IMG/VR virus record: IMGVR_UViG_3300044824_000335 | Coordinates: 1-31,451 of that record | Origin: a virus | Reading direction: 5' to 3' (one strand) | DNA length: 31,451 nt | Part shown: positions 6,137-31,451 of the stretch, in pieces | How positions within the stretch are numbered: position 1 is the first letter of the stretch | How the letters are laid out: each line of letters starts with the position of its first letter | Translations under genes and position numbers: made by a program | Notes under the pieces: generated by a model | The model's input: only the letters and a program-made list of their open reading frames with translations | What the model was told of the DNA's origin: nothing | Databases searched by the model: none

Positions 6137-8527
6137 ATGGAACGCGACTCCGATACCGGCATCCTGAAAAGGGCCCAGGCCCTGCGGACGCCCATCGACC
6201 CGGCCTTCGCCGACCTGGCGGCCGGCGGCATGCGCACCCTGCCGGCGCCCCAGCAGTCCGAGGACTGGTTCGGGCCGTCCGTGCCCATCCAGCCCCAGGC
6301 GCCCCCTGAGGCCGCGGCCCGGGCCTACGATTTCCCGGTGGGCTACAACCTCACCATCCAGCCCCGGGCCGGCTACCTCCCCTTCGAGCTGCTGCGCAAC
6401 CTGGCGGAATCCCACGACATCACCCGGCTGTGCATCGAGACCCGCAAGGACCAGCTCGTCAAGCTCAAGACGAGCATAAGGGGCAAGGAGGGCGCCGACG
6501 TGGCCCCGGACGACAAGCGGGTCCAGGAGATCGAGGCCTTTCTGCGCTTCCCCGACCGGCTCCATTCCTGGCAGGCCTGGCTCAGGATGCTCATGGAAGA
6601 TGTTTTTGTCATCGACGCCCCGGCCATCTACCCCCGCCAGAACCTGAACGACAAGCTCTACGCCCTGGAGATCGTGGACGGCGCCACCATCAAGCTGGTG
6701 ATCGACGGCAACGGGCGCACCCCGGTGCCCCCGGCCCCGGCCTACCAGCAGATCATCCACGGCATCCCGGCCACCGAATACACCGCCGAGGAGCTGGTCT
6801 ACGTCCCCCGCAACCCCCGCTCCTGGAGGCTCTACGGCTACTCCCCGGTGGAGCAGACCATCATGATCGTCAACATCGCCCTGCGGCGCCAGCTCTTCCA
6901 GCTCAACTTCTACATGGAGGGCAGCATCCCCGAGGGCTTCGCCGAGTGCCCCCAGGAATGGTCGGCGGCGCAGATCGGGGAGTTCCAGGGCTACTGGGAC
7001 GCCCTCTTGAGCGGCAACCTGGCCATGCGCCGGCGGATGATCTTCGTGCCCTCCGGCGCCAAGCCCCTGTTCCCCAAGCTGGAGGGCCTCAAGGACGAGT
7101 TCGACGAATGGCTGGCCCGGGTGGTCTGCTACTGCCACTCTCTCCCTCCGACCCCCTTCGTGCGCCAGATGAACCGGGCGGTGGCCCAGTCGGTCCAGCA
7201 GACCGCCCTGGAGGAGGGCCTGCAGCCCCTGATGCAGTGGATCAAGGACCTGATGGATTACATCATCTGGCGCTACTGGGGATTCTACGACCTGGAGTTC
7301 GCCTGGCAGGAGGAAGAGTCGGTGGCCCCGGACGTCCAGGCCACGATCGACGCCTCGGACGTGGCCGCGGGCATCGTCACGCGCCGGGAGATACGCACCA
7401 AGCGGGGCCTGGACGACGACGGCATCCCCAATTTCATCATCATCCCCGGCATCGGGCCGGTGCTGCTGGACGACATCGGCAAGGAGCAGCCGGAGCCGGG
7501 AGGACCGGACGCGGCCAGTGACCAGTTGCCAGTGGCCAGTAAAGACAAAGACAAAGAAAAAGGCAAAGGCAAAGAAGCGGAAGTGGCCAGTGACCAGTTG
7601 CCAGTGGCCAGTAAAGACAAAGACAAAGAAAAAGGCAAAGGCGAAGAACCGGAAGTGGCCAGTAAAGACAAAAGCAAAAAACTGGATAAGGCCGCTAAAA
7701 AAAAAATGAAGATCGAGCCCATAGATAGAGACCGGCCGCCCATGGCCCAGGCCCGGGCCGACATCAAGAAGCTGTTTCAAAAGGCTTTCGAGGCCGATCT
7801 GCCGGCCGCGGCGGCCAGCCTCGCCAAAGGTCTGGGGCTGAAGAAAGTTATCAGTGATCAGTGGCCAGTGGCCAGTAAAAAAGGCCAAGGCGGCGAAAAA
7901 TCACTGATTACTGATCACCGGTTACTGAAAACTGACGATGATGAAAAGATCGATAAGCTCCTGGCCGACCTGGACCTGGCCGGCATCGCCGCCACCCGCA
8001 AGGAGGTTGCCGCCATCCTGGCCCAGGCGGCCCAAAACGGCGGCCTGGCGGCCTTTGTCCAGCTCGACTTCGAGGACTCCGCCATCACCAGCCAGGTCAA
8101 CAAGCTGGCGGTGGAGTGGGCCGAAAACCGGGCCGCGGAGCTGGTGACCAAGATCGAGGAGTCGACCCGTGATTACCTGCGGGCCGACGTCACCCAGGCG
8201 GTCCAGGAGGGCTGGAGCACCGCCCGGCTGAGCGGCGTCCTCCAGGATAATTTCGGCTTTTCGGCAGGGCGCTGCGACATGATCGCCCGCACCGAGATCG
8301 CCAAGGCCGACGTGCAGGGCAACATGATGGCCTACAGGGCCAGCGGCCTGGTGAGCGGCAAGAAGTGGATCCTGGGCTCGGAGCACCCCCAGGACGACGA
8401 GTGCAACGGCAACGCCGACGAGGGCGTGATCCCCCTGGACCAGGACTTTTCCTCCGGGGACGACGCACCCCCGGCGCACCCCAACTGCGAGTGCGACGTG
8501 ATCCCGGAGCTGGGAGAGAAAGAGTAA
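6137..8527 (+). CDS. Portal protein fused to MuF/SPP1 gp7-like domain, with repeat-encoded linker
   Basis: Residues 1 to about 455 are a portal protein, the dodecameric ring at the packaging vertex. They show the ITRLCIETRKDQ region, WLRMLMEDVFVIDAPAIY, a YGYSPVEQTI motif near 233, and the PPTPFV-QMNRAVAQ region near 340. Residues about 610-796 match the MuF/SPP1 gp7 head-morphogenesis family, with RTEIAKAD near 718 and the C-terminal motif PPAHPNCECD. The two parts are normally separate or directly fused genes. Here they are joined by Lys-rich sequence that is a translated form of the intergenic heptad repeats (residues about 459-511 and 571-600). A 72-bp (24-codon) unit is repeated about 2.2 times inside it. 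Reading stays open throughout. The start abuts the repeat arm with no clear Shine-Dalgarno. Confidence 0.9.
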   Translation: MERDSDTGILKRAQALRTPIDPAFADLAAGGMRTLPAPQQSEDWFGPSVPIQPQAPPEAAARAYDFPVGYNLTIQPRAGYLPFELLRNLAESHDITRLCIETRKDQLVKLKTSIRGKEGADVAPDDKRVQEIEAFLRFPDRLHSWQAWLRMLMEDVFVIDAPAIYPRQNLNDKLYALEIVDGATIKLVIDGNGRTPVPPAPAYQQIIHGIPATEYTAEELVYVPRNPRSWRLYGYSPVEQTIMIVNIALRRQLFQLNFYMEGSIPEGFAECPQEWSAAQIGEFQGYWDALLSGNLAMRRRMIFVPSGAKPLFPKLEGLKDEFDEWLARVVCYCHSLPPTPFVRQMNRAVAQSVQQTALEEGLQPLMQWIKDLMDYIIWRYWGFYDLEFAWQEEESVAPDVQATIDASDVAAGIVTRREIRTKRGLDDDGIPNFIIIPGIGPVLLDDIGKEQPEPGGPDAASDQLPVASKDKDKEKGKGKEAEVASDQLPVASKDKDKEKGKGEEPEVASKDKSKKLDKAAKKKMKIEPIDRDRPPMAQARADIKKLFQKAFEADLPAAAASLAKGLGLKKVISDQWPVASKKGQGGEKSLITDHRLLKTDDDEKIDKLLADLDLAGIAATRKEVAAILAQAAQNGGLAAFVQLDFEDSAITSQVNKLAVEWAENRAAELVTKIEESTRDYLRADVTQAVQEGWSTARLSGVLQDNFGFSAGRCDMIARTEIAKADVQGNMMAYRASGLVSGKKWILGSEHPQDDECNGNADEGVIPLDQDFSSGDDAPPAHPNCECDVIPELGEKE
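7513..7668. repeat. Heptad/purine-linker repeats inside the portal-MuF gene, 72-bp tandem unit
   Basis: Units GGCCAGT, GACCAGT and TGCCAGT plus an AAAGACAAAGACAAAG linker start at 7513, 7585 and 7657, a 72-bp period. They encode ASDQLPVASKDKDKEKGKG twice in frame. Confidence 0.9.
7847..7935. repeat. Complete heptad module inside the portal-MuF gene
   Basis: A left arm (TATCAGT, GATCAGT, GGCCAGT), an AAAAAAGGCCAAGG linker and a right arm (ACTGATT, ACTGATC, ACTGAAA) are all present and translated as residues about 571-600 without a stop. Confidence 0.9.
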
Positions 8528-8737: not shown

Positions 8738-9334
8738 ATGAAAAGACTTGCCGCTTTATTTTGCCTTATTCTGGTCCTGCTGCTGGCGGCTTCCCAGGCA
8801 ATGGCGCAAACCACCACCGTGGTCCTCAAGGCCCCGGCCGGCGTCACCCAGTTCATCGGCCCCGACGGCAGCGTGGTCACCCCGGACGCCAACGGGCACG
8901 TGACCGCCCTCCTGACCCAGGAGCAATATTTTGCCGCCGCCGGCTTCCAGGAATATACCACCTACATGCTCCAGCAGGCGGCCATGAACCAGATGGTCTT
9001 CGTGATCTCCCCGGCCACCCTGACCACGGGCCACGGCTCCGCGGCCAACCGCACCGTGACCGTCACCCTGAAGAACGCCGCCGGGGAAGTCCACACCTGG
9101 TACAACCGGGCCGTGACCTCCGGGGTTTCCATCGCCGTGGCCCACACCGGCGGGGGGACCGGCACCGCCACCATCGTCTCCACCACCCTGACCTTCGTCA
9201 ACGGGGTGGCGACGGTGGTCATCACCGAGGGCGGCTCGCCCCTGGCCACCGACACCGACACCCTGACCATCCCCGCCGAGACCATCTGCGGGTTCAGCGT
9301 CACCGGGGTCACCAGCGTGGAGACCTATAGCTAA
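8738..9334 (+). CDS. Secreted LKAPxGVT-domain protein (198 aa)
   Basis: A good ribosome-binding site (AAAAAGGAGAAAGAAG) precedes the ATG. Residues 1-23 are a Sec signal peptide (MKRLAALFCLILVLLLA, cleavage after AMA). Residues about 27-70 (VLKAPAGVTQFIGPDGSVVTPDANG) match a short domain found in small phage head proteins. The same domain is the whole of the next gene, which has no signal peptide. Residues 90-198 are Thr/Val-rich beta structure (RTVTVTLKNAAGEVHTWYNRAVTSG, TLTFVNGVATVVITEGG) resembling an immunoglobulin-like or decoration domain. The position between portal and protease and the shared domain suggest a virion-surface protein; the signal peptide is unexpected for one. Function unproven. 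Confidence 0.75.
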   Translation: MKRLAALFCLILVLLLAASQAMAQTTTVVLKAPAGVTQFIGPDGSVVTPDANGHVTALLTQEQYFAAAGFQEYTTYMLQQAAMNQMVFVISPATLTTGHGSAANRTVTVTLKNAAGEVHTWYNRAVTSGVSIAVAHTGGGTGTATIVSTTLTFVNGVATVVITEGGSPLATDTDTLTIPAETICGFSVTGVTSVETYS

Positions 9335-9384: not shown

Positions 9385-9609
9385 ATGGAAAGATTTATCA
9401 TTTTGAAGGCCCCCCCCGGAGTGACCGTTTTTGTGGGCCCTGACGGCAATAGGGTCCAGGTGTACGCCTCGGGCAAGATCGCGGTCCCTGAAAGCCAGTT
9501 AGATTTCTTTCTTGAGGCCGGATGCAGGAAGGCTAAAGGCGTGCGGGAAACGGCCCCCGAAGCTGAAATGCCTGCGGGCAAAAAAGTTTCGAGAAAAAGA
9601 GGGAGCTAA
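9385..9609 (+). CDS. Small LKAPxGVT-domain phage protein (74 aa)
   Basis: The start has AAGGAG 8 bp upstream. Residues 5-50 (FIILKAPPGVTVFVGPDG, then VPESQLDFFLEAGC) form a compact domain clearly paralogous to residues 27-70 of the preceding secreted protein. Similar small proteins in other phages sit beside capsid or head genes; their biochemical role is not known to me. The C-terminal 20 residues are basic (GKKVSRKRGS). It is separated from its paralogue only by a REP-like palindrome, so the pair probably arose by tandem duplication or import followed by gain or loss of the export signal. Confidence 0.75.
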   Translation: MERFIILKAPPGVTVFVGPDGNRVQVYASGKIAVPESQLDFFLEAGCRKAKGVRETAPEAEMPAGKKVSRKRGS

Positions 9610-13250: not shown

Positions 13251-13796
13251 ATGGACCTGACCACCCTGGCCAACGTCAAGGCCTGGCTGAACCTCACCGT
13301 CGATATTAGCGACGCCCTGCTGGTGCGCCTCATCGCCGGGATCAGCGCCTGGGTGCAGTCCTACCTCAGCCGCCAGGTCCTCTCCCAGAGCTACGCCGAG
13401 GTGCGGGACGGCCACGACACCCAGGTGCTGTACTTCAGGGAGTACCCGGTGACCGCGGTCTCCGGGGTCACGGTGGACGGCGTGGCCATCCCCCCGGCCC
13501 CCGACACCGTCACCCCGGGCTACCGCTTCACCCTGGGCCGGCTCATCTTGCAGGGCTATCGCTTCACCCGGGGCTGGGGCAACGTCACCCTGGATTACAC
13601 CGCGGGCTATGATGCCGCGCCCCCCGACCTGGAGCAGGCGGTCATCGAGCTGGTGGCCTTCCGCTTCAAGGAGCGGGGGCACATCGGCGACCAGAGCGTC
13701 GCCTTCCAGGGCCAGACCACGAGCTTCACGGTGGCCGAGCTGCCGCCCTCGGTCAAGGCGGTGCTGGATAAATGGAAAAAGGTGGTGCCGGGGTAG
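13251..13796 (+). CDS. Head-tail connector protein (gp6-like)
   Basis: An AAGAGGAC ribosome-binding site precedes the ATG. The 181-residue protein has the hallmarks of the phage head-tail connector (gp6/DnaT-like) family: an N-terminal helical part LTTLANVKAWLNLT plus DALLVRLIAGISAWVQSYLSR (residues 3-43), a beta domain with YFREYPVTAVSGVTVDGVAIP (60-85), GWGNVTLDYTAGYDAAPPDLEQAVIELVAFRFKERG (107-143), and a C-terminal helix. It forms a ring below the portal. The order capsid, small protein, connector is standard. Confidence 0.88.
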   Translation: MDLTTLANVKAWLNLTVDISDALLVRLIAGISAWVQSYLSRQVLSQSYAEVRDGHDTQVLYFREYPVTAVSGVTVDGVAIPPAPDTVTPGYRFTLGRLILQGYRFTRGWGNVTLDYTAGYDAAPPDLEQAVIELVAFRFKERGHIGDQSVAFQGQTTSFTVAELPPSVKAVLDKWKKVVPG

Positions 13797-13800
13797 AAGA

Positions 13801-13953
13801 TAGTGATCAGTGATCAGTGATCAGTGATCAGTAAACAGTAATCAGTAATCAGTAATCAGTAATCAGTAATCAGTAATCAGTTTTTTCTCTTTTGACTTTG
13901 CCTTGGTTTTTGCTTTGCTTTTACTGATTACTGGCCACTGGCCACTGATCACT
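13801..13953. repeat. Heptad-arm module 10
   Basis: Four GATCAGT units, AAACAGT and a run of AATCAGT, then the same pyrimidine linker as module 9, and an ACTGATT/ACTGGCC right arm. Confidence 0.9.
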
Positions 13954-13972
13954 TTCTAAGGGGAGAACGCCT

Positions 13973-14182
13973 ATGCTGAAAAAGGTTCTTCACGCCCTGT
14001 TCTACCTGGCCAAGGCCTACCTGCTCCTGGTGGGTCTGATCGTCACCGTGATGGTGGGCCGCCAGCTTTATCTCGACCGCCAGGGCAGCAAGATCCCGAT
14101 GGTCCGGGCGCAGCTCAATTTAGTGCTGCCGCCTGCAACCTTTACTAACCGGCCCGGTCAATCAGTGACCGGTAAACAGTAA
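13973..14182 (+). CDS. Small single-pass membrane protein (69 aa)
   Basis: AGGGGAGAACGCCT precedes the ATG. Residues 7-28 (LFYLAKAYLLLVGLIVTVMVG) form one transmembrane segment with a Lys-rich N-terminus and a basic QLYLDRQG stretch after it. No cleavage site is evident. It could be a holin-like, anchor or superinfection-type protein; nothing decides between them. The last residues (QSVTGKQ) are encoded by the following heptad module, which also provides the TAA, so the original C-terminus may have been lost. It resembles the ORF at 476-634 in size and topology. Confidence 0.65.
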   Translation: MLKKVLHALFYLAKAYLLLVGLIVTVMVGRQLYLDRQGSKIPMVRAQLNLVLPPATFTNRPGQSVTGKQ

Positions 14183-14284
14183 TCAGTAATCAGTAATCAG
14201 TAATCAGTAAAGGCAAAAACTGACCACTGACCACTGACCACTGGCCACTGACCACTGATAACTGTTTACTGATTACTGATAACT
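14160..14284. repeat. Heptad-arm module 11
   Basis: AATCAGT left arm overlapping the end of the membrane-protein gene, linker AAAGGCAAAAAC, and an ACTGACC/ACTGATA right arm. It is very similar to module 8. Confidence 0.9.
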
Positions 14285-14306
14285 AAGGAAAAGAAGGAGA
14301 ACGCAA

Positions 14307-14768
14307 ATGAAGAACAAGCTGAGAATCCCCCTACTGGCAATAGCCTTCATCCTGGCCCTGGTGGTTACCAGCTCCGGTACCAGCTTCGTGCTGGCCACCA
14401 CCGAGCGCCACTCTGCCGGTGCGGCCATCGCAACCGACACGAACTCCGGCCACCTGAGAATCTACACCGGGGCCGATACCAACGGGCCGAATGGGGCGGT
14501 CACCGGCACCCTCCTGGTGGACTGGACGCTCAACGCCACCAACACGGATACCGGCGGGGTCATCACTCTGGGGACCGTGAGCAACGTCAATGCCTCCGCT
14601 ACGGGGACGGCGGGTTATTTCCGCATACTCAAATCCGATGGTTCTACGGCTATTGCCGATGGCGACGTGGGCACTTCGGCTACCAGCCTGGTGCTCAACA
14701 CCACCAGCATCGTCTCAGGCGGCCCCTGCTCCCTGAGCGGGACGATCACGGTGCCCGCGGGGACCTAA
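14307..14768 (+). CDS. Secreted virion-type protein (153 aa)
   Basis: AAGAAGGAGAACGCAA precedes the ATG. Residues 1-30 form a signal peptide or N-terminal membrane anchor (LLAIAFILALVVTSSG). The mature part (HLRIYTGADTNGPNGAVTGT, LLVDWTLN, ATGTAGYFRILKSDGST, DVGTSATSLVLNTTSIVSGG, TITVPAGT) matches a family I recall as common in tailed phages, which normally starts directly with the LRIY segment and lacks any export signal. Its role is thought to be structural (head or tail decoration). A signal on such a protein is unusual. It begins a run of five signal-peptide genes. Confidence 0.75.
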   Translation: MKNKLRIPLLAIAFILALVVTSSGTSFVLATTERHSAGAAIATDTNSGHLRIYTGADTNGPNGAVTGTLLVDWTLNATNTDTGGVITLGTVSNVNASATGTAGYFRILKSDGSTAIADGDVGTSATSLVLNTTSIVSGGPCSLSGTITVPAGT

Positions 14769-14779
14769 GAAGTGAAAAA

Positions 14780-14925
14780 AGTAATCAGTGATCAGTGGTC
14801 AGTAATCAGAGGCCAGTGGTTAGTGGTCAGTGGCCAGTGATCAGTAAAGGCAAAAACAAAAACAAAAACTGGTTACTGGTTACTGATTACTGATTACTGA
14901 TTACTGATTACTGATCACTGATCAC
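14780..14925. repeat. Heptad-arm module 12
   Basis: This is a direct copy of module 5 (shared variant AATCAGAGGCCAGT and AAAAAC-repeated linker) with one extra GGTTAGT unit. Confidence 0.9.
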
Positions 14926-14942
14926 GGGAAAGGGGTGAAGGT

Positions 14943-15833
14943 ATGAAAAAGATTATGAAGTGCTTTGCAGCCCTGACGCTGGCAGCCCTCCTGGCCTTCC
15001 CCGTCTCGGCGGCTGATTGGCCGATTCTGAGCGATGGGGGGAACCAATATACTGCGGGGGCGGCGACCGCCAGTTCTCTGGGCACGAGTGTTGCCGCAGG
15101 CTCTCCCGCTAATTCGCTGGGTTCCTGGGTGCAGTTAGTCGCCGCCGGTTCCAACCCCGGGGGTGTGCTGATCTTATTTGTTGAGAACACTACCTCTAGC
15201 CAAAGAAGCGTGATGCTAAATATTGGCATAGGGCCTTCAGGAAGTCAGGTAATAGTAGTTCCGCAGTTATATTGCGCAATGGGTCCATACGCTTTGGCGC
15301 AGGCTGTTCTTCCTATTTATATCCCTCCTGGGGTAGCGTTATGGGTCCAATCTCAAGGGGTCGTCGCCGCCTCCGCCGTTTATGTCACCGCCAGTTTGGT
15401 TATGCCCGGATTCATGCCATCAACACCCTTCCAGCGAGTCACCGCATACGGGGCAAGTTCTTTAACGAGTCAAGGCATAACTGTTGACCCGGGCGGCACC
15501 GTCAATACTAAAGGAGCCTGGACTGAGATATCTGCATCTATTGCCAACCCCACAAAGATGCTGTTGATGGGTGTGGGACAATTAGCGACCTCCGGAGCGG
15601 CCGTTCTTTGTCAGTTGGTAGATATCGGCGTGGGGCCTTCATCCGGAGCGGTGACCACTATAATCAGCAATATTCCTGTTTACAATAATGGCAGTTATAT
15701 CGTATTGCCTTGTTTTGTTGGTCCTTTCCCGGCAACCATCCCAGCCGGGTCAAACCTTTGGGGCCGCAGCCAGTGTAATAACAATGGTGCAACCGTTAGA
15801 TTACTTAGCATCGCCCTCTACGGGATTGATTAA
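14943..15833 (+). CDS. Secreted two-domain virion-type protein (296 aa)
   Basis: GGGAAAGGGGTGAAGGT precedes the ATG. Residues 1-23 are a clear Sec signal peptide (KCFAALTLAALLAFPVSA, then ADWP). The mature protein contains two related beta-rich domains in tandem. The first (about 55-155) has GSWVQLVAAG, MLNIGIGPSGSQVIVVPQL and LPIYIPPGVALWVQSQ. The second (about 180-290) has GAWTEISASI, VDIGVGPSSGAVTTIISNI and FPATIPAGSNLWGRSQ. This duplicated layout occurs in phage structural proteins of unknown role, likely jelly-roll-like. GC is lower from about 15180 onward. The next gene follows after only 9 bp, so translation is probably coupled. Confidence 0.75.
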   Translation: MKKIMKCFAALTLAALLAFPVSAADWPILSDGGNQYTAGAATASSLGTSVAAGSPANSLGSWVQLVAAGSNPGGVLILFVENTTSSQRSVMLNIGIGPSGSQVIVVPQLYCAMGPYALAQAVLPIYIPPGVALWVQSQGVVAASAVYVTASLVMPGFMPSTPFQRVTAYGASSLTSQGITVDPGGTVNTKGAWTEISASIANPTKMLLMGVGQLATSGAAVLCQLVDIGVGPSSGAVTTIISNIPVYNNGSYIVLPCFVGPFPATIPAGSNLWGRSQCNNNGATVRLLSIALYGID

Positions 15834-15842
15834 GGAGGAGTT

Positions 15843-16241
15843 ATGCCGACAGTGAGACGCCTTTTAACGATCATCGGCATCTTATTGCTGCTTTTATCCG
15901 GGACCGCCCATGCCCTCACCGTGGTCACCAGCGGCAACCAGACAGCGGACGGCAGCGAGGATTACCTGTTTGCCTCCAACACCACCGCCGGGACATATAT
16001 CCTGGTGGTCGATACCACCAACATGGTGAACGGCGAGACCGTCGTCTTGAAGATTTACTCAGGGGCTAATTCTTCTTCATTGATTCTTGCTTACCAGGCC
16101 ACCTATGTCAACGCCCAGACGGAGCCGTTGAAGTTCAGCGTGCCTGTCCCTTCGGACCAGGCTATCCGCTGTTCTTTGACCCAATCGGTTTACGTATCTT
16201 CATACAAGACTTTCTACTGGAAATTCTTGAGCATCCCATGA
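15843..16241 (+). CDS. Secreted virion-type protein (132 aa)
   Basis: A perfect AAGGAGGAG lies just before the ATG. Residues 1-24 are a Sec signal peptide (LLTIIGILLLLLSGTAHA). The mature 108 residues (TSGNQTADGSEDYLFASNTT, AGTYILVVDTTNMVNGETVVLKIYSG, AYQATYVNAQTEPLKFSVPVPSD, FYWKFLSI) match a small family I recall as frequent in phage structural modules, usually without a signal. Its C-terminus overlaps the next gene by ATGA, and the previous gene ends 9 bp upstream; no repeat modules separate these three genes. They probably form one translational unit and act together. Confidence 0.78.
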   Translation: MPTVRRLLTIIGILLLLLSGTAHALTVVTSGNQTADGSEDYLFASNTTAGTYILVVDTTNMVNGETVVLKIYSGANSSSLILAYQATYVNAQTEPLKFSVPVPSDQAIRCSLTQSVYVSSYKTFYWKFLSIP

Positions 16242-17335
16242 TCAAACGGTTAGCCATCATCTGTCTTATTCTATCAATTCTCTTCGCCGGGACCGCCCAG
16301 GCGACGGTGCAGACCGAGGCGTACTATATTCCCTTTTCTATTGCAACATTATCCGGAGCATTGAATCAAGTAACGGCCTCGCTTACCGGCAGCGTGGTCG
16401 ATTTCGCCGGCGCTTTGTCCGGGGCCTTGACCCAAGTCACCGCGGCCCTCTCGGCCACCATCACTTCATCGGGCATTACTGCTACCCTGGCCGGGGCGCT
16501 GACCCAGATTTCCGGGGCTATTACGGGAAATACCCTGGTCTCGACCCTGTCCGGGGCGTTGACGCAGGTGTCGGCGGCCTTAACCGGGAATCATGGGGTA
16601 GGAACTACTCTGTCAGGAACTCTCACTCAAGTGTCAGGGGCCTTGAGCGGGTCCTCCCTGGCGGCAACTTTATCGGGCGCTTTGACCCAAGTTTCCGCGG
16701 CTCTCTCGGCTACCTTCAATTTAGCGAACATTACGGCTGCCCTGTCCGGGGCGCTGACGAAGGTGTCGGCTTCCCTGACGGGGGCGCACGGGGTGACGAG
16801 CACCGTCGCCGGGGCCTTGGCCCAGGTTTCCGCTTCCCTGACCGGGGCGCACGGCGTGGCCGGGGCCATCTCAGGCTTGCTGACCCAGGCCAGCGCAGCC
16901 CTGAGCGGCTCTTCGCTGGTCTCGACTTTGTCTGGGGCCTTGACGCAGTTGACCGCGGCCCTCACCGGGGCGCACGGGGTGGCAGCCCATGTCTCGGGTG
17001 CGCTGGCCCAGGTAAGCGCCGCTTTTTCAGCCACTACCGTAATTACCAACTTTGTGGCCGCCCTCTCTGCCAACCTGGTCCAGGTTACTGCGGGCCTGAC
17101 CGGGGGACACGGGGTCGGCGGCGTCTTAACCGCGTCGTTGAACCGGATAAACGCCGTCCTCTCCTGCGGGCACGGGGTAGCCGCGGCCTTGACCGCAACC
17201 CTGGAGCAGTTCAGCTTCAAGGGACTGGCCGGTATTTTTCAGCGCGTGGTCAGGTTTCTCTACGTGCTCCTTATGGGCCCGGAAAACCGGACGCTGCCCC
17301 TGGGGTTTGACAACCGGGTGCTGGTAGTTCAGTGA
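16238..17335 (+). CDS. Secreted repeat protein with about 14 SGALTQVSAALTG units
   Basis: The start overlaps the previous stop (ATGA), implying coupled translation. Residues 1-22 are a Sec signal peptide (LAIICLILSILFAGTAQA). Residues about 30-325 hold roughly 14 units of about 20 residues, consensus T-L-S-G-A-L-T-Q-V-S-A-A-L-T-G, often followed by xHGV. The alternation of small and hydrophobic residues suggests a fibrous trimeric stalk. The C-terminal 35 residues (RVVRFLYVLL, then ENRTLPLGFDNRVLVVQ) resemble the end of phage structural proteins. Its last codons and TGA stop are shared with the first repeat unit of the next module. A fibre or stalk role is inferred. Confidence 0.72.
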   Translation: MIKRLAIICLILSILFAGTAQATVQTEAYYIPFSIATLSGALNQVTASLTGSVVDFAGALSGALTQVTAALSATITSSGITATLAGALTQISGAITGNTLVSTLSGALTQVSAALTGNHGVGTTLSGTLTQVSGALSGSSLAATLSGALTQVSAALSATFNLANITAALSGALTKVSASLTGAHGVTSTVAGALAQVSASLTGAHGVAGAISGLLTQASAALSGSSLVSTLSGALTQLTAALTGAHGVAAHVSGALAQVSAAFSATTVITNFVAALSANLVQVTAGLTGGHGVGGVLTASLNRINAVLSCGHGVAAALTATLEQFSFKGLAGIFQRVVRFLYVLLMGPENRTLPLGFDNRVLVVQ

Positions 17336-17636
17336 TCAGTGATCAGTGGCCAGTGATCAGTAAAGGCAAAGGCAAAAGAAAGTGATCAGTGATCAGTGGC
17401 CAGTGATCAGTAAAGGCAAAGGCAAAAGAAAGTTATCAGTGATCAGTGGCCAGTGATCAGTAAAGGCAAAGGCAAAAGAAAGTTATCAGTGATCAGTGGC
17501 CAGTGATCAGTAAAGGCAAAGGCAAAGGCAAAGGCAAAGAATAGGGATGATCTTACTGATTACTGATTACTGATTACTGGTTACTGATTACTGATTACTG
17601 GTTACTGATTACTGATTACTGATAACTGGTTACTGG
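17331..17636. repeat. Heptad module 13 with four 50-bp tandem units; 317-bp gene-free stretch
   Basis: Units at 17331, 17381, 17431 and 17481 are 50 bp each: GATCAGT, GATCAGT, GGCCAGT, GATCAGT, then AAAGGCAAAGGCAAAAGAA. A right arm of ACTGATT and ACTGGTT follows from about 17554. The stretch between 17336 and 17652 holds only this. Confidence 0.93.
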
Positions 17637-17652
17637 AAAAAAAGGGAAGGCC

Positions 17653-18033
17653 ATGAAAAGACCCTTTAGGAAACGGTGCGCCTCGGCGCTACTCTGCGGC
17701 CTACTGCTTCTGTCCCTGGCTCTCACGGCCCGGGCCGACAACTCCTTCGAGCGCCGACCCGACGGCTGGTACGCCCCGGCCAAGCCCGCGGCCGCGGTCC
17801 TGGACTATTCCATCGACTACACCCTCTGGCTGGCCGGCGACACCATCTCCAGCAGCGCCTGGACCTTCGACGCCGGGATCACCGGGATCCCGGTCAGCAT
17901 CGGGTCGCCCTATGCCAAGGCCACCACCTGGCTCTCCGGGGGCACGGCCGGGACCACCTATAACGTCACCAATACCATCACCACCGCCGCGGGCCGCACC
18001 GAGGTGGTGGTCTTTAAGGTCTACGTGTACTGA
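17653..18033 (+). CDS. Fibre-tail adaptor-like protein with signal peptide (126 aa)
   Basis: GGGAAGGCC precedes the ATG. Residues 1-28 are a Sec signal peptide (ALLCGLLLLSLALTARA before DNSF). Residues 42-126 (AVLDYSIDYTLWLAGDTISS, SAWTFDAGIT, ATTWLSGGTAGTTYNVTNTI, TTAAGRTEVVVFKVYV) closely follow the phage fibre-tail adaptor family, in which the DPxxxLDYxIDW segment normally stands near the N-terminus of a cytosolic protein. Here that domain is preceded by an export signal. It lies between the repeat-fibre gene and the tail completion gene, consistent with a virion role. One of the best examples of the signal-peptide anomaly. Confidence 0.8.
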   Translation: MKRPFRKRCASALLCGLLLLSLALTARADNSFERRPDGWYAPAKPAAAVLDYSIDYTLWLAGDTISSSAWTFDAGITGIPVSIGSPYAKATTWLSGGTAGTTYNVTNTITTAAGRTEVVVFKVYVY

Positions 18034-18037
18034 AAGG

Positions 18038-18181
18038 ACAGTGATCAGTGATCAGTAAACAGTAAACAGTAAACAGTAATCAGTAATCAGTAATCAGTTT
18101 TGCCTTTACTGATCACTGGCCACTGATCACTGATCACTGATCACTAATTACTGGCCACTGGCCACTGACCACTGGAAACTG
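18038..18181. repeat. Heptad-arm module 14
   Basis: GATCAGT, AAACAGT and AATCAGT left arm, short pyrimidine linker TTTTGCCTTT, and ACTGATC/ACTGGCC right arm. Confidence 0.9.
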
Positions 18182-18185
18182 ACTT

Positions 18186-18656
18186 ATGATCCGCGCGGAA
18201 ATCATCGGGGATGAGGCGGTCATCGCCAGCCTGGGGGCCATCCCGGACCGGGTGACCGGCCTGGTGCGCGCCGCGGTGGAGGCAGAGGCCATCGCCCTCA
18301 CCGCCTACGTCAAGGAGCAGAAGCTCTCCGGCCAGGTACTGCGCAACATCACCGGGACGCTCAGGCGCAGAACCAATTACGCCATGACCGGGGACCTCAG
18401 CGCCAGCGTGGGCACCAACCTGGTCTACGCCGCCATCCACGAATACGGCGGCCAGACCCGGGCCCATATCATCGAGGCCAAAAACGCCAAGGCCCTGGCC
18501 TTCCAGATGGGCGGCGACACCATCATCCGCAAGCTGGTGCACCACCCGGGCTCGCGCATGCCGGAGCGCTCCTTCCTGCGCTCCAGCCTGAGGGAAAGCC
18601 GGGATAGAATCCTGGCGGCCATCCAGGCCGCGGTGGCAGAGGGGATTAAAGGATAG
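18186..18656 (+). CDS. HK97 gp10-like tail completion protein
   Basis: The 156-residue protein matches the HK97 gp10 / virion-morphogenesis group, which joins tails to filled heads. Features are the N-terminal EIIGDEAVIASLGAIPDRVTG (residues 5-25), a helix of small residues, GTLRRRTNY and SASVGTNLVYAAIHEYGGQT (residues 57-95, the hallmark YAxxHEYG motif), PGSRMPERSFLRSSLRESRDRI (119-140) and a C-terminal helix. The ATG sits after ACTGACTT, with no Shine-Dalgarno visible. The order connector, gp10-like, terminator, tail tube is standard for siphoviruses, although a block of signal-peptide genes has been placed between connector and gp10. Confidence 0.88.
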   Translation: MIRAEIIGDEAVIASLGAIPDRVTGLVRAAVEAEAIALTAYVKEQKLSGQVLRNITGTLRRRTNYAMTGDLSASVGTNLVYAAIHEYGGQTRAHIIEAKNAKALAFQMGGDTIIRKLVHHPGSRMPERSFLRSSLRESRDRILAAIQAAVAEGIKG

Positions 18657-25961: not shown

Positions 25962-26713
25962 CTTTTTGTGGGAATTATATACTTGACTCCCGAAACTTGA
26001 GAAACCCATGATCTGGCCTGACGACTACCTAATCCCCGGAATTGAGCCGTACCACGTTGAGGACGCCGGGATAATCTATTGTGCCGATTGCCGGGACATC
26101 CTGCCCCACTTGCCCAAGGTGGATTTGGTGCTGACTGATCCGCCGTATGGATTGTACTATGAATATGACCAGTATCAAGATTCTGAGCAAAACCTAATTG
26201 ATTTAATAAATAAAGTGTTTCCATTGTTGACCGCCGATAGAATCATGCTGACTTGCGGACACACAAATATATGGAAGTACCCTCCCGCTACTTGGGTTAT
26301 GTGCTGGTATTATGGAACGACTAACGCCCTAAACAGTTGGGGATTTACTTCTTGGCAGCCAATTCTCTGCTATGGCAAGGATGCTTATTTAGCGAATGGG
26401 AAAGGCGCAAGAATGGATGTGATTAAAGACTCACGTTCGCCGGACCCAGAATTGAAAAACAAAAAACATTCCTGCCCAAAACCAATTAGCTTCGTTAAGA
26501 AACTGCTTATTCGGGGAAGTGTCAATCCATTAGATATAGTTCTTGACCCATTTTTAGGGCTGGGAAGTACGGCGGTAGCCGCCAAGGAATTAGGCCGCAA
26601 GTTTATCGGGATTGAGATTAGCGAGGAGTACTGCCAGATCGCAGTTAAACGACTGAGACAGGGGATGCTTGATTTTGGATAAAGGGAGTCAAATATATAA
26701 TTCCCCTTTTTGT
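25962..26713 (+). mobile_element. Transposon-like cassette carrying a methyltransferase (TIRs and 8-bp target duplication)
   Basis: A 736-bp element (25970-26705) begins GGGAATTATATACTTGA and ends with the inverse TCAAATATATAATTCCC. The 22-bp terminal inverted repeats (25970-25991 and 26684-26705) match at 21 of 22 positions. The direct repeat CTTTTTGT sits immediately outside each end (25962-25969 and 26706-26713), the signature of a target site duplication. No transposase is inside. The element is AT-richer than the phage, and removing it restores the linker TCTTTTTGTCTTTTGACTTT seen in other modules. An 8-bp duplication and GGG ends recall IS1595-type elements and mobile insertion cassettes, but the family is not proven. 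Confidence 0.88.
26008..26682 (+). CDS. DNA methyltransferase, beta class (N6-adenine or N4-cytosine)
   Basis: The 224-residue protein has the catalytic motif TDPPYG (residues 43-48) near the N-terminus and the AdoMet-binding motif DPFLGLGST (180-188) near the C-terminus, with IGIEISEEYCQIA after it; this order defines the beta class. HSCPKPISFVKKLL (154-167) matches the usual HPTxKP region. It would methylate a short DNA target, protecting DNA or altering regulation; the target cannot be read from sequence. GC is clearly lower than in flanking genes. It is the sole gene of the cassette and stops two bases before the right inverted repeat. No restriction partner is present. Confidence 0.9.
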   Translation: MIWPDDYLIPGIEPYHVEDAGIIYCADCRDILPHLPKVDLVLTDPPYGLYYEYDQYQDSEQNLIDLINKVFPLLTADRIMLTCGHTNIWKYPPATWVMCWYYGTTNALNSWGFTSWQPILCYGKDAYLANGKGARMDVIKDSRSPDPELKNKKHSCPKPISFVKKLLIRGSVNPLDIVLDPFLGLGSTAVAAKELGRKFIGIEISEEYCQIAVKRLRQGMLDFG

Positions 26714-31247: not shown

Positions 31248-31451
31248 TCATTTCTCGCGTCCCGCTTTACGGGGCAGGGCCTTCTCCAGGTAGTTCAGGG
31301 CCTCCCCATACTTCTGCTCCTTCGCCATGACGGCCGCGAGATTGTTCAGGACCAGGGGGTTATTGGGGTCCTGCTTCAGAAGCTTTTCGAAGATGGACTT
31401 GGCCTGGTCCAGCTTGCCCGCCTCCAGAAGATCATAGCTCGAAACCAGCAT
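31248..31451 (-). CDS. TPR-repeat protein, 3' part
   Basis: The reverse-strand frame runs from the window end to TGA at 31248. It holds two tetratricopeptide-type helical hairpins: AGKLDQAKSIFEKLLKQDPNNP (residues 11-32) and VLNNLAAVMAKEQKYGEALNYLEKAL (34-59), with the conserved Ala/Gly, Leu and Pro positions. An ATG coincides with the last three bases, so the gene probably extends beyond the window. TPR domains bind partner proteins; the specific role is unknown. Opposite orientation to all phage genes and absence of heptad modules suggest host chromosome. Confidence 0.75.
   Translation of the reverse strand: MLVSSYDLLEAGKLDQAKSIFEKLLKQDPNNPLVLNNLAAVMAKEQKYGEALNYLEKALPRKAGREK

What the first reader, a model, noticed from the sequence alone, without database searches (positions are those of the whole stretch)
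13973..18033. Accessory island between head connector and tail completion genes
Connector and gp10-like genes are usually neighbours; here 4.4 kb with six genes, five having signal peptides and one a membrane segment, stands between them, bounded by modules. This is a natural place to look for a new function.
Basis: partly seen in the sequence, partly recalled or inferred. Interest (0 to 1): 0.55.

Follow-up and report, generated by a model that had tools for sequence, protein, structure and literature searches.

The report
Phage fibre cassette with export signals
Between two head-tail joint genes, this Mu-like phage carries an extra set of fibre and decoration genes, five of which begin with the tag bacteria use to send proteins out of the cytoplasm, whereas the relatives found in unrelated phages lack that tag, which suggests that the phage makes this part of its attachment gear outside the cytoplasm.

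Summary
In detail: 4,389 bp (13797-18185) separate connector and gp10-like genes and carry six ORFs, five with Sec-type signal peptides (SPs) and one with a membrane segment. The island is accessory: the gap is 50 bp or less in 99 of 113 loci surveyed, and the nearest relatives (75-76% capsid identity) have no such genes there; other assemblies of the same virus carry them.

The function is not blank. 17653 is a Gp77 fibre-tail adaptor (Pfam 1e-21; PDB 8jou). 14307 belongs to the family of a phage 7-7-1 tail-fibre-complex protein, probably its garland. 14943-15843 is a gene pair that unrelated phages carry side by side. Outside homologues found here lack the SP (14307 0/10, 14943 0/10, 15843 0/8, Gp77 0/2). 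Phage L089 has TM-14307-repeat-Gp77 upstream of its connector, again with SPs.

Best reading: a mobile adsorption/decoration module of a Mu-like phage, exported by Sec and assembled outside the cytoplasm. Hint: an SP-bearing domain of L089 is, in L010/L009, built into the connector. Whether the proteins join virions or stay on the host envelope is not shown; SPs were called by my own rule, not SignalP or experiment. New variant of a known kind.

The parts
13251..13796 (+). left border: head-tail connector (gp6-like adaptor)
   Evidence: PHROG 442 1.9e-33; Pfam Phage_connect_1 2.1e-9
13973..14182 (+). 69-aa single-membrane-segment protein (TM69)
   Evidence: homologue in L089 next to the 14307 homologue; no Pfam or PHROG match
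14307..14768 (+). SP + garland-type virion structural protein (PHROG 3758)
   Evidence: PHROG 3758 5.2e-18; profile matches PDB 9rkv_A 1.7e-14 and 44nx_B 3.9e-12; 10 outside homologues without SP
14943..15833 (+). SP + two tandem similar beta-rich halves
   Evidence: outside homologues start just past the SP; no Pfam, PHROG or PDB sequence match; weak fold model
15843..16241 (+). SP + single beta-sandwich domain; directly follows 14943
   Evidence: alignment A2; model pLDDT 79.3; neighbour of 14943 homologues in eight outside loci
16238..17335 (+). SP + repeats of about 20-21 residues (shaft-like by inference)
   Evidence: repeat count; weak matches PHROG 3590 3.6e-4 and minor tail PHROG 17035 5.3e-3; L089 homologue 665 aa
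17653..18033 (+). SP + Gp77 fibre-tail adaptor domain
   Evidence: Pfam PF23148 1.1e-21, 77.5 bits against cut-off 27; PDB 8jou_D 1.1e-10
13797..13972 (.). heptamer repeat array in the gap
   Evidence: 99 array bases
14183..14306 (.). heptamer repeat array in the gap
   Evidence: 86 array bases
14769..14942 (.). heptamer repeat array in the gap
   Evidence: 89 array bases
17336..17652 (.). heptamer repeat array in the gap, with 50-bp higher-order repeats
   Evidence: 182 array bases; family D7
18034..18185 (.). heptamer repeat array in the gap
   Evidence: 124 array bases
18186..18656 (+). right border: gp10-like tail completion protein
   Evidence: Pfam Phage_tail_S 3.3e-7; PHROG 26 3.7e-12
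8738..9334 (+). outside the island: SP protein between portal and protease, same property
   Evidence: SP in window virus, L008/L011 and L009/L010
3483..3887 (+). outside the island: SP protein before the terminase, shared with L089

Best explanation
The island is a mobile adsorption/decoration cassette of a Mu-like transposable phage: a garland-type protein, a tandem beta-domain pair, a repeat (shaft) protein and a fibre-tail adaptor. Shown: the cassette is accessory; two members belong to families with solved virion structures; the 14943-15843 pair sits side by side in other phages; and in this lineage each of the five proteins begins with its own Sec-type signal sequence that the outside homologues found here lack. 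Inferred: the products are exported by Sec late in infection, fold and partly assemble in the periplasm, and dock on virions at lysis through the adaptor and garland surfaces, giving an extra adhesion layer at neck or tail. Not shown: the docking, the place on the virion, and that the signal sequences work.
For: Gp77 and PHROG 3758/garland-type family matches. SPs are clean prefixes in alignments and lacking in outside homologues: 15843 0 of 8, 14943 0 of 10, 14307 0 of 10, Gp77 0 of 2. L089 has four members with SPs at another place, upstream of its connector. SP is less conserved than the mature part yet keeps its layout in 5 of 6 usable ortholog comparisons. An SP-bearing product of L089 is 43% identical to a ~235-residue insert inside the connector of L010 (L009 has the same long connector), so the same kind of domain sits in a neck protein elsewhere. 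SP enrichment.
Against: No experiment; SPs called by a home-made rule with a 2.9% background. Tailed phages assemble in the cytoplasm as far as known (recalled), and XepA, an exported phage protein, is absent from mature particles (PMC6834076). 14943 and 15843 have no PHROG match and no PDB sequence match. In 8738 of the window against L010 the SP is slightly more alike than the mature part (0.64 against 0.59). Several outside homologues are near copies of one another, so independent cases are fewer than the counts.
Confidence: 0.42

Rival explanations
1. Exported but never on the virion: fibre/decoration domains given signal peptides are displayed in the periplasm or on the host surface late in infection, where they mask receptors on the dying cell and debris or help lysis, as XepA is proposed to do.
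For: SPs on all five; XepA of PBSX is exported during phage development and absent from mature particles (PMC6834076, passages); XepA is the best-scoring, though tied, fold match of the 15843 model (Z 9.8, rmsd 5.7, 110 aligned).
Against: The tail adaptor and garland-type domains are kept; one exported domain is built into a connector in L010/L009; profile comparison with YomS gives no link.
Confidence: 0.33
2. The hydrophobic N-termini do not work as signal peptides: they are uncleaved docking or membrane-touching segments of proteins that are assembled into virions in the cytoplasm.
For: Family membership is virion-type; no SignalP or experiment was available.
Against: Charged n-region, hydrophobic core and AxA site in each of the five; sequence drifts while the layout stays; outside homologues do without the segment.
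Confidence: 0.12
3. A run of unrelated exported morons (host-envelope or lysogenic-conversion genes) collected at a permissive site, with no common machine.
For: The site takes other insertions: L170 has two minus-strand ORFs there, one with an SP-like start by eye; L023 has four SP-like ORFs between portal and protease; the island gaps, except those inside 14943-16238, hold repeat arrays.
Against: Members match virion families and recur together: four in L089, 14943-15843 in eight outside loci.
Confidence: 0.08

Closest known systems
Gp77 fibre-tail adaptor of Ralstonia phage GP4 (PF23148, PDB 8jou)
   Same: 17653 carries the domain over residues 44-123 (77.5 bits; 8jou_D 1.1e-10)
   Different: 17653 has an SP in front; the solved chain has 93 residues and matches from its residue 7; GP4 is a podophage
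Garland protein gp014 of phage 7-7-1 (PDB 9rkv) and Milano virion-associated protein
   Same: 14307 family profile matches 9rkv_A 1.7e-14; Milano 42% over residues 26-148
   Different: SP in front; a Mu-like phage; that 9rkv_A is the garland chain is my inference from its length and the model's label
XepA/YomS of PBSX and SPbeta
   Same: works-like lead: exported late phage protein (XepA); tandem and single beta-sandwich, like 14943 and 15843; best-scoring though tied fold match for 15843
   Different: no sequence link to YomS; no Sec signal peptide of XepA itself is mentioned in the passages that I saw
LSH1 'extra structural module' gp34-36
   Same: optional co-occurring structural genes, one matching 8JOU_g (PMC13243795 section 16)
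   Different: lies downstream of the lysis module; 'signal peptide' does not occur in the main text

Membership tests
Gp77 fibre-tail adaptor (PF23148) | domain match above Pfam's curated cut-off | tested here: met
   17653-18033: 77.5 bits, cut-off 27
Gp77 fibre-tail adaptor (PF23148) | joins a fibre to the tail in the particle | not testable with these tools
   needs particles
PHROG 3758 / garland-type protein | sequence-profile match to a solved tail-fibre-complex chain | tested here: met
   9rkv_A 1.7e-14, 44nx_B 3.9e-12
PHROG 3758 / garland-type protein | dimers around tail fibres | not testable with these tools
   needs particles; description from PMC12796354 section 10
XepA/YomS | sequence relation | tested here: inconclusive
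   hhalign A2 against YomS: probability 0.1, E 0.43; a single YomS sequence, XepA not compared by sequence
XepA/YomS | C2-like beta-sandwich fold | tested here: inconclusive
   15843 model Z 9.8, rmsd 5.7, tied with unrelated rows; 14943 model too weak
Sec-exported protein | n-region, hydrophobic core, AxA site | tested here: met
   five of six island ORFs by a home-made rule; SignalP not available
Sec-exported protein | cleavage and export | not testable with these tools
   needs experiment
Mu-like transposable phage | Mu-type transposase and GemA | tested here: met
   second contig of the same virus, G409: transposase PHROG 310 3e-30, GemA PF06252 2.4e-15; Mu F domain in the window's portal ORF 6e-8

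The most novel reading that the evidence does not exclude
A tailed phage that makes part of its virion outside the cytoplasm: a whole optional adsorption module (adaptor, garland-type protein, shaft, beta-sandwich pair) is exported by Sec, matures in the periplasm and is added to particles at lysis; export signals have been put in front of fibre and decoration domains more than once.
Probability: 0.3. Interest if true: 0.87.

Novelty: new variant of a known kind. Interest (0 to 1): 0.6.

Why it matters
Fibre, garland and decoration proteins of tailed phages are treated as cytoplasmic parts. A whole module carrying Sec signals, with outside homologues that lack them, makes a clean test possible: do tailed phages use the periplasm as an assembly compartment, or turn virion domains into host-envelope proteins? 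Either answer would change how 'signal peptide = moron, not virion' is used when phage genomes are annotated.

Tried and rejected
A new defence or toxin system: nothing in the Pfam and PHROG results suggests one; PADLOC and NCBIfam were not run. Assembly artefact: rejected, other assemblies carry the island whole (L007) or in part (L088, L096, L201). L004's long gap rests on a 25-bit gp10 match and is not counted as an island by me; L056 (1619 bp) shows no convincing gene set, and L170 (1995 bp) has two minus-strand ORFs. XepA/YomS by sequence: no link found. The 14943 fold: model too weak to name. Host: the best capsid relative in genome contigs is 49% identical (80 of 99 relatives kept); a Gp77 profile found nothing in 395 genomes of the phylum of a Geobacteraceae genome, which without a positive control shows little. 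Heptamer arrays as a host mark: the pattern rings in 33 of those 395 genomes, but by my count the reversed control rings in 38, so this is no evidence of a host. The third gene of the SP-less block, and a Gp77-like last gene in L097, resemble the window genes only by eye; no profile supported that. Near copies (L097/L098; L093/L094/L095) make the independent outside cases fewer than the raw counts. tblastn of 17653 in named phages gave one weak match, Microcystis phage Mae-JY22, E 5e-3. Literature check for SP-bearing fibre or neck proteins of tailed phages: searches (12 of 38 listed; 5 of 5; 15 of 41; 0 found; 6 of 109), listings only; I saw no such report there. The library holds open papers only.
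Full report
Observation. The window is a viral record of 31,451 bp with a head-to-tail morphogenesis cluster on the + strand. Connector 13251-13796 and gp10-like 18186-18656 are identified by PHROG and Pfam. Between them are 4,389 bp with six ORFs. Five begin with signal-peptide-like N-termini; the first is a 69-aa protein with one membrane segment. Some of those 53 lie in host flanks. The rule is not SignalP.

The virus. A second contig of the same virus (G409, reached through the 3483 gene at 100%) extends it to the left and carries a Mu-type transposase (PHROG 310, 3e-30) and GemA (2.4e-15). The relative G001 (L008, 44 kb, capsid 76%) has the same transposase family. So this is a Mu-like transposable phage. 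Its host is unknown: the closest prophage capsid in genome contigs is 49% identical.

Accessory state. Capsid-related loci came from viral contigs (83 distinct), bacterial genomes (80) and three named phages. Of all 188 records held at that time, 113 had recognisable capsid, connector and gp10 genes in order, the window and its copy L007 included. The connector-gp10 gap is at most 50 bp in 99 of 113, 51-150 in 3, 151-500 in 6 and more than 500 in 5. The five are the window, L007, L056, L170 and L004 (the last rests on a weak gp10 call). The nearest relatives L008 and L011 (306 bp) and L010 (190 bp) have no island genes there, and Gp77 and PHROG 3758 were not found in the seven records searched, four relatives' contigs and three named phages; three of the contigs are short, so genes elsewhere could be missed. 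The island is an addition in this lineage.

What the proteins are. 17653 is a Gp77 fibre-tail adaptor: Pfam 77.5 bits, PDB 8jou_D 1.1e-10. 14307 is PHROG 3758, virion structural (5.2e-18); a profile of seven members finds PDB 9rkv_A (1.7e-14) and 44nx_B (3.9e-12). 9RKV is the 'Tail fibers' model of phage 7-7-1 (PMC12796354, passages). The chain has 141 residues, as has gp014, which the paper names as the garland protein around the tail fibres (section 10 read; gene length); that identity is my inference. The direct BLAST match of 14307 in 7-7-1 is gp012. 14943 has two tandem similar halves and 15843 one beta-sandwich; neither family has a PHROG match or a PDB sequence match, and 14943 has no Pfam match (15843 was tested against Pfam as a single protein, where SpaA_3 at E 0.16 lies below its cut-off). 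16238 has 11 copies of a repeat core, mostly 20-24 residues apart, and only weak matches to PHROG 3590 and a minor-tail family.

The signal peptides are extra. In profile searches over the loci held, homologues outside this phage group lack an SP: 15843 0 of 8, 14943 0 of 10 (one truncated, one with an uncertain start), 14307 0 of 10, Gp77 0 of 2 (one a weak, 22-bit match). Some are near copies of one another. Within the group each row that covers the N-terminus has one: the window virus in its assemblies, and L089 (14307, repeat protein, Gp77). In the alignments the SP is a clean prefix: VSA^ADWPIL against M-GDWPATL for 14943, AHA^LTVVTSGNQT against M-PSLEASGTQA for 15843 (cleavage sites placed by eye), and about 22 extra residues for 14307. 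Ribosome-binding sites precede the SP-including starts of 14307, 14943 and 15843. SP against mature identity between orthologues: Gp77 27% against 60%, 14307 56% against 71%, 3483 50% against 71%, 8738 43% against 59% (window-L008) and 46% against 80% (L010-L008), but 64% against 59% for 8738 window-L010; a seventh pair, the repeat protein, did not align well enough. Drift with a kept layout is what working SPs show; one pair of six goes the other way.

Synteny. 14943 and 15843 homologues are neighbours in all eight outside loci (L097, L098 and L100-L104 in the window's order, L099 reversed). Inside the window the block 14943-15843-16238 has no repeat array between its genes, whereas the other island gaps do. 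L089 has TM69, 14307, the repeat protein and Gp77 together, upstream of the connector, without arrays and without 14943-15843. Its genes at the portal and capsid position look different by eye, while its tail-tube gene matches the window's (272.8 bits). So the cassette occurs in two phage types and two positions and is built from sub-blocks.

Same property elsewhere. 8738, between portal and protease, carries an SP in the window virus, L008/L011 and L009/L010 (the L008 and L011 copies fail the stricter rule). Its C-terminal domain follows what I read as the capsid gene, without an SP, in L210 and L211. 3483 carries an SP in the window and L089. G001 has four SP-like ORFs just before its terminase, one lipoprotein-like by eye, one with a tail-fibre-type repeat by eye whose only PHROG match is to a deacetylase family over 66 residues near its end. 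L210, another phage, has an SP-like 130-aa ORF directly before a connector-like gene (by eye; no PHROG match; no Pfam match).

Link to the virion. In L010 the connector is interrupted by about 235 residues (flanking connector parts 71% and 88% identical to L008's); L009, from another sample, has the same long connector. The insert is 43% identical to L089's SP-bearing 6109 product. The same kind of domain is thus exported in one phage and part of the neck protein in another. This is the best hint that the exported domains belong on particles. It looks LamG/ConA-like to me; Pfam gives no match for the L089 protein.

Mechanism. Shown: an optional cassette of virion-family proteins with SP-like N-termini. 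Inferred: late expression from its place in the morphogenesis cluster, Sec export, periplasmic folding, docking on particles at lysis via adaptor and garland surfaces. The main rival keeps the proteins in the envelope. XepA is its precedent: exported during phage development and absent from mature particles (PMC6834076, passages), and the best-scoring though tied fold match of 15843 (Z 9.8, rmsd 5.7); a comparison with YomS gives no sequence link. The data do not separate the two; I put 0.42 on the first and 0.33 on the second.

Literature. Of nine searches, five (listings only, partly capped) were aimed at exported or SP-bearing virion proteins and showed no report of this. LSH1's optional 'extra structural module' (PMC13243795, section 16 read) is the closest published parallel that I saw; 'signal peptide' does not occur in its main text. 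Of PMC10491603 (Milano neck) I saw passages.

Noticed in passing
window 364-29870, 23 of 29 gaps between genes: Heptamer arrays (CAGTNNN / ACTGNNN) fill 2,287 of 4,854 intergenic bases. L008 uses mainly another heptamer (GAGCAGT); L089's contig stretches have none. A genome search gave no excess over its reversed control (33 against 38 of 395 genomes).
   Followed up: partly
window 7516-7880 (portal ORF 6137-8527) and L008 7415-7490: Heptamer units lie in frame inside the portal gene, and in L008 the hydrophobic core of the 8738 homologue's SP is itself written in heptamer units, so the arrays can supply Leu-rich signal-peptide sequence.
   Followed up: partly
L010 5081-6325 and L009 9264-10502: Connector gene with an in-frame insert of about 235 residues related to an SP-bearing protein of L089.
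   Followed up: yes
window 8738-9334 and 9385-9609: Neighbouring genes share a small domain (KAPxGVTxFxGPDG); the first has an SP, the second does not.
   Followed up: partly
L210 6656-7048: SP-like 130-aa ORF directly before a connector-like gene in another phage.
   Followed up: partly
L023 6353-8845: Four SP-like ORFs between portal and protease genes; two look like paralogues.
   Followed up: no
L170 12392-14296: Two minus-strand ORFs inserted between connector and gp10, one with an SP-like start by eye.
   Followed up: no
window 26008-26682: DNA methyltransferase gene (PHROG 67, 7e-43) inside the tail module, in a stretch of lower GC.
   Followed up: no
window 31248-31451, minus strand: A tetratricopeptide-repeat ORF runs off the right end, perhaps host DNA beside a prophage.
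   Followed up: no
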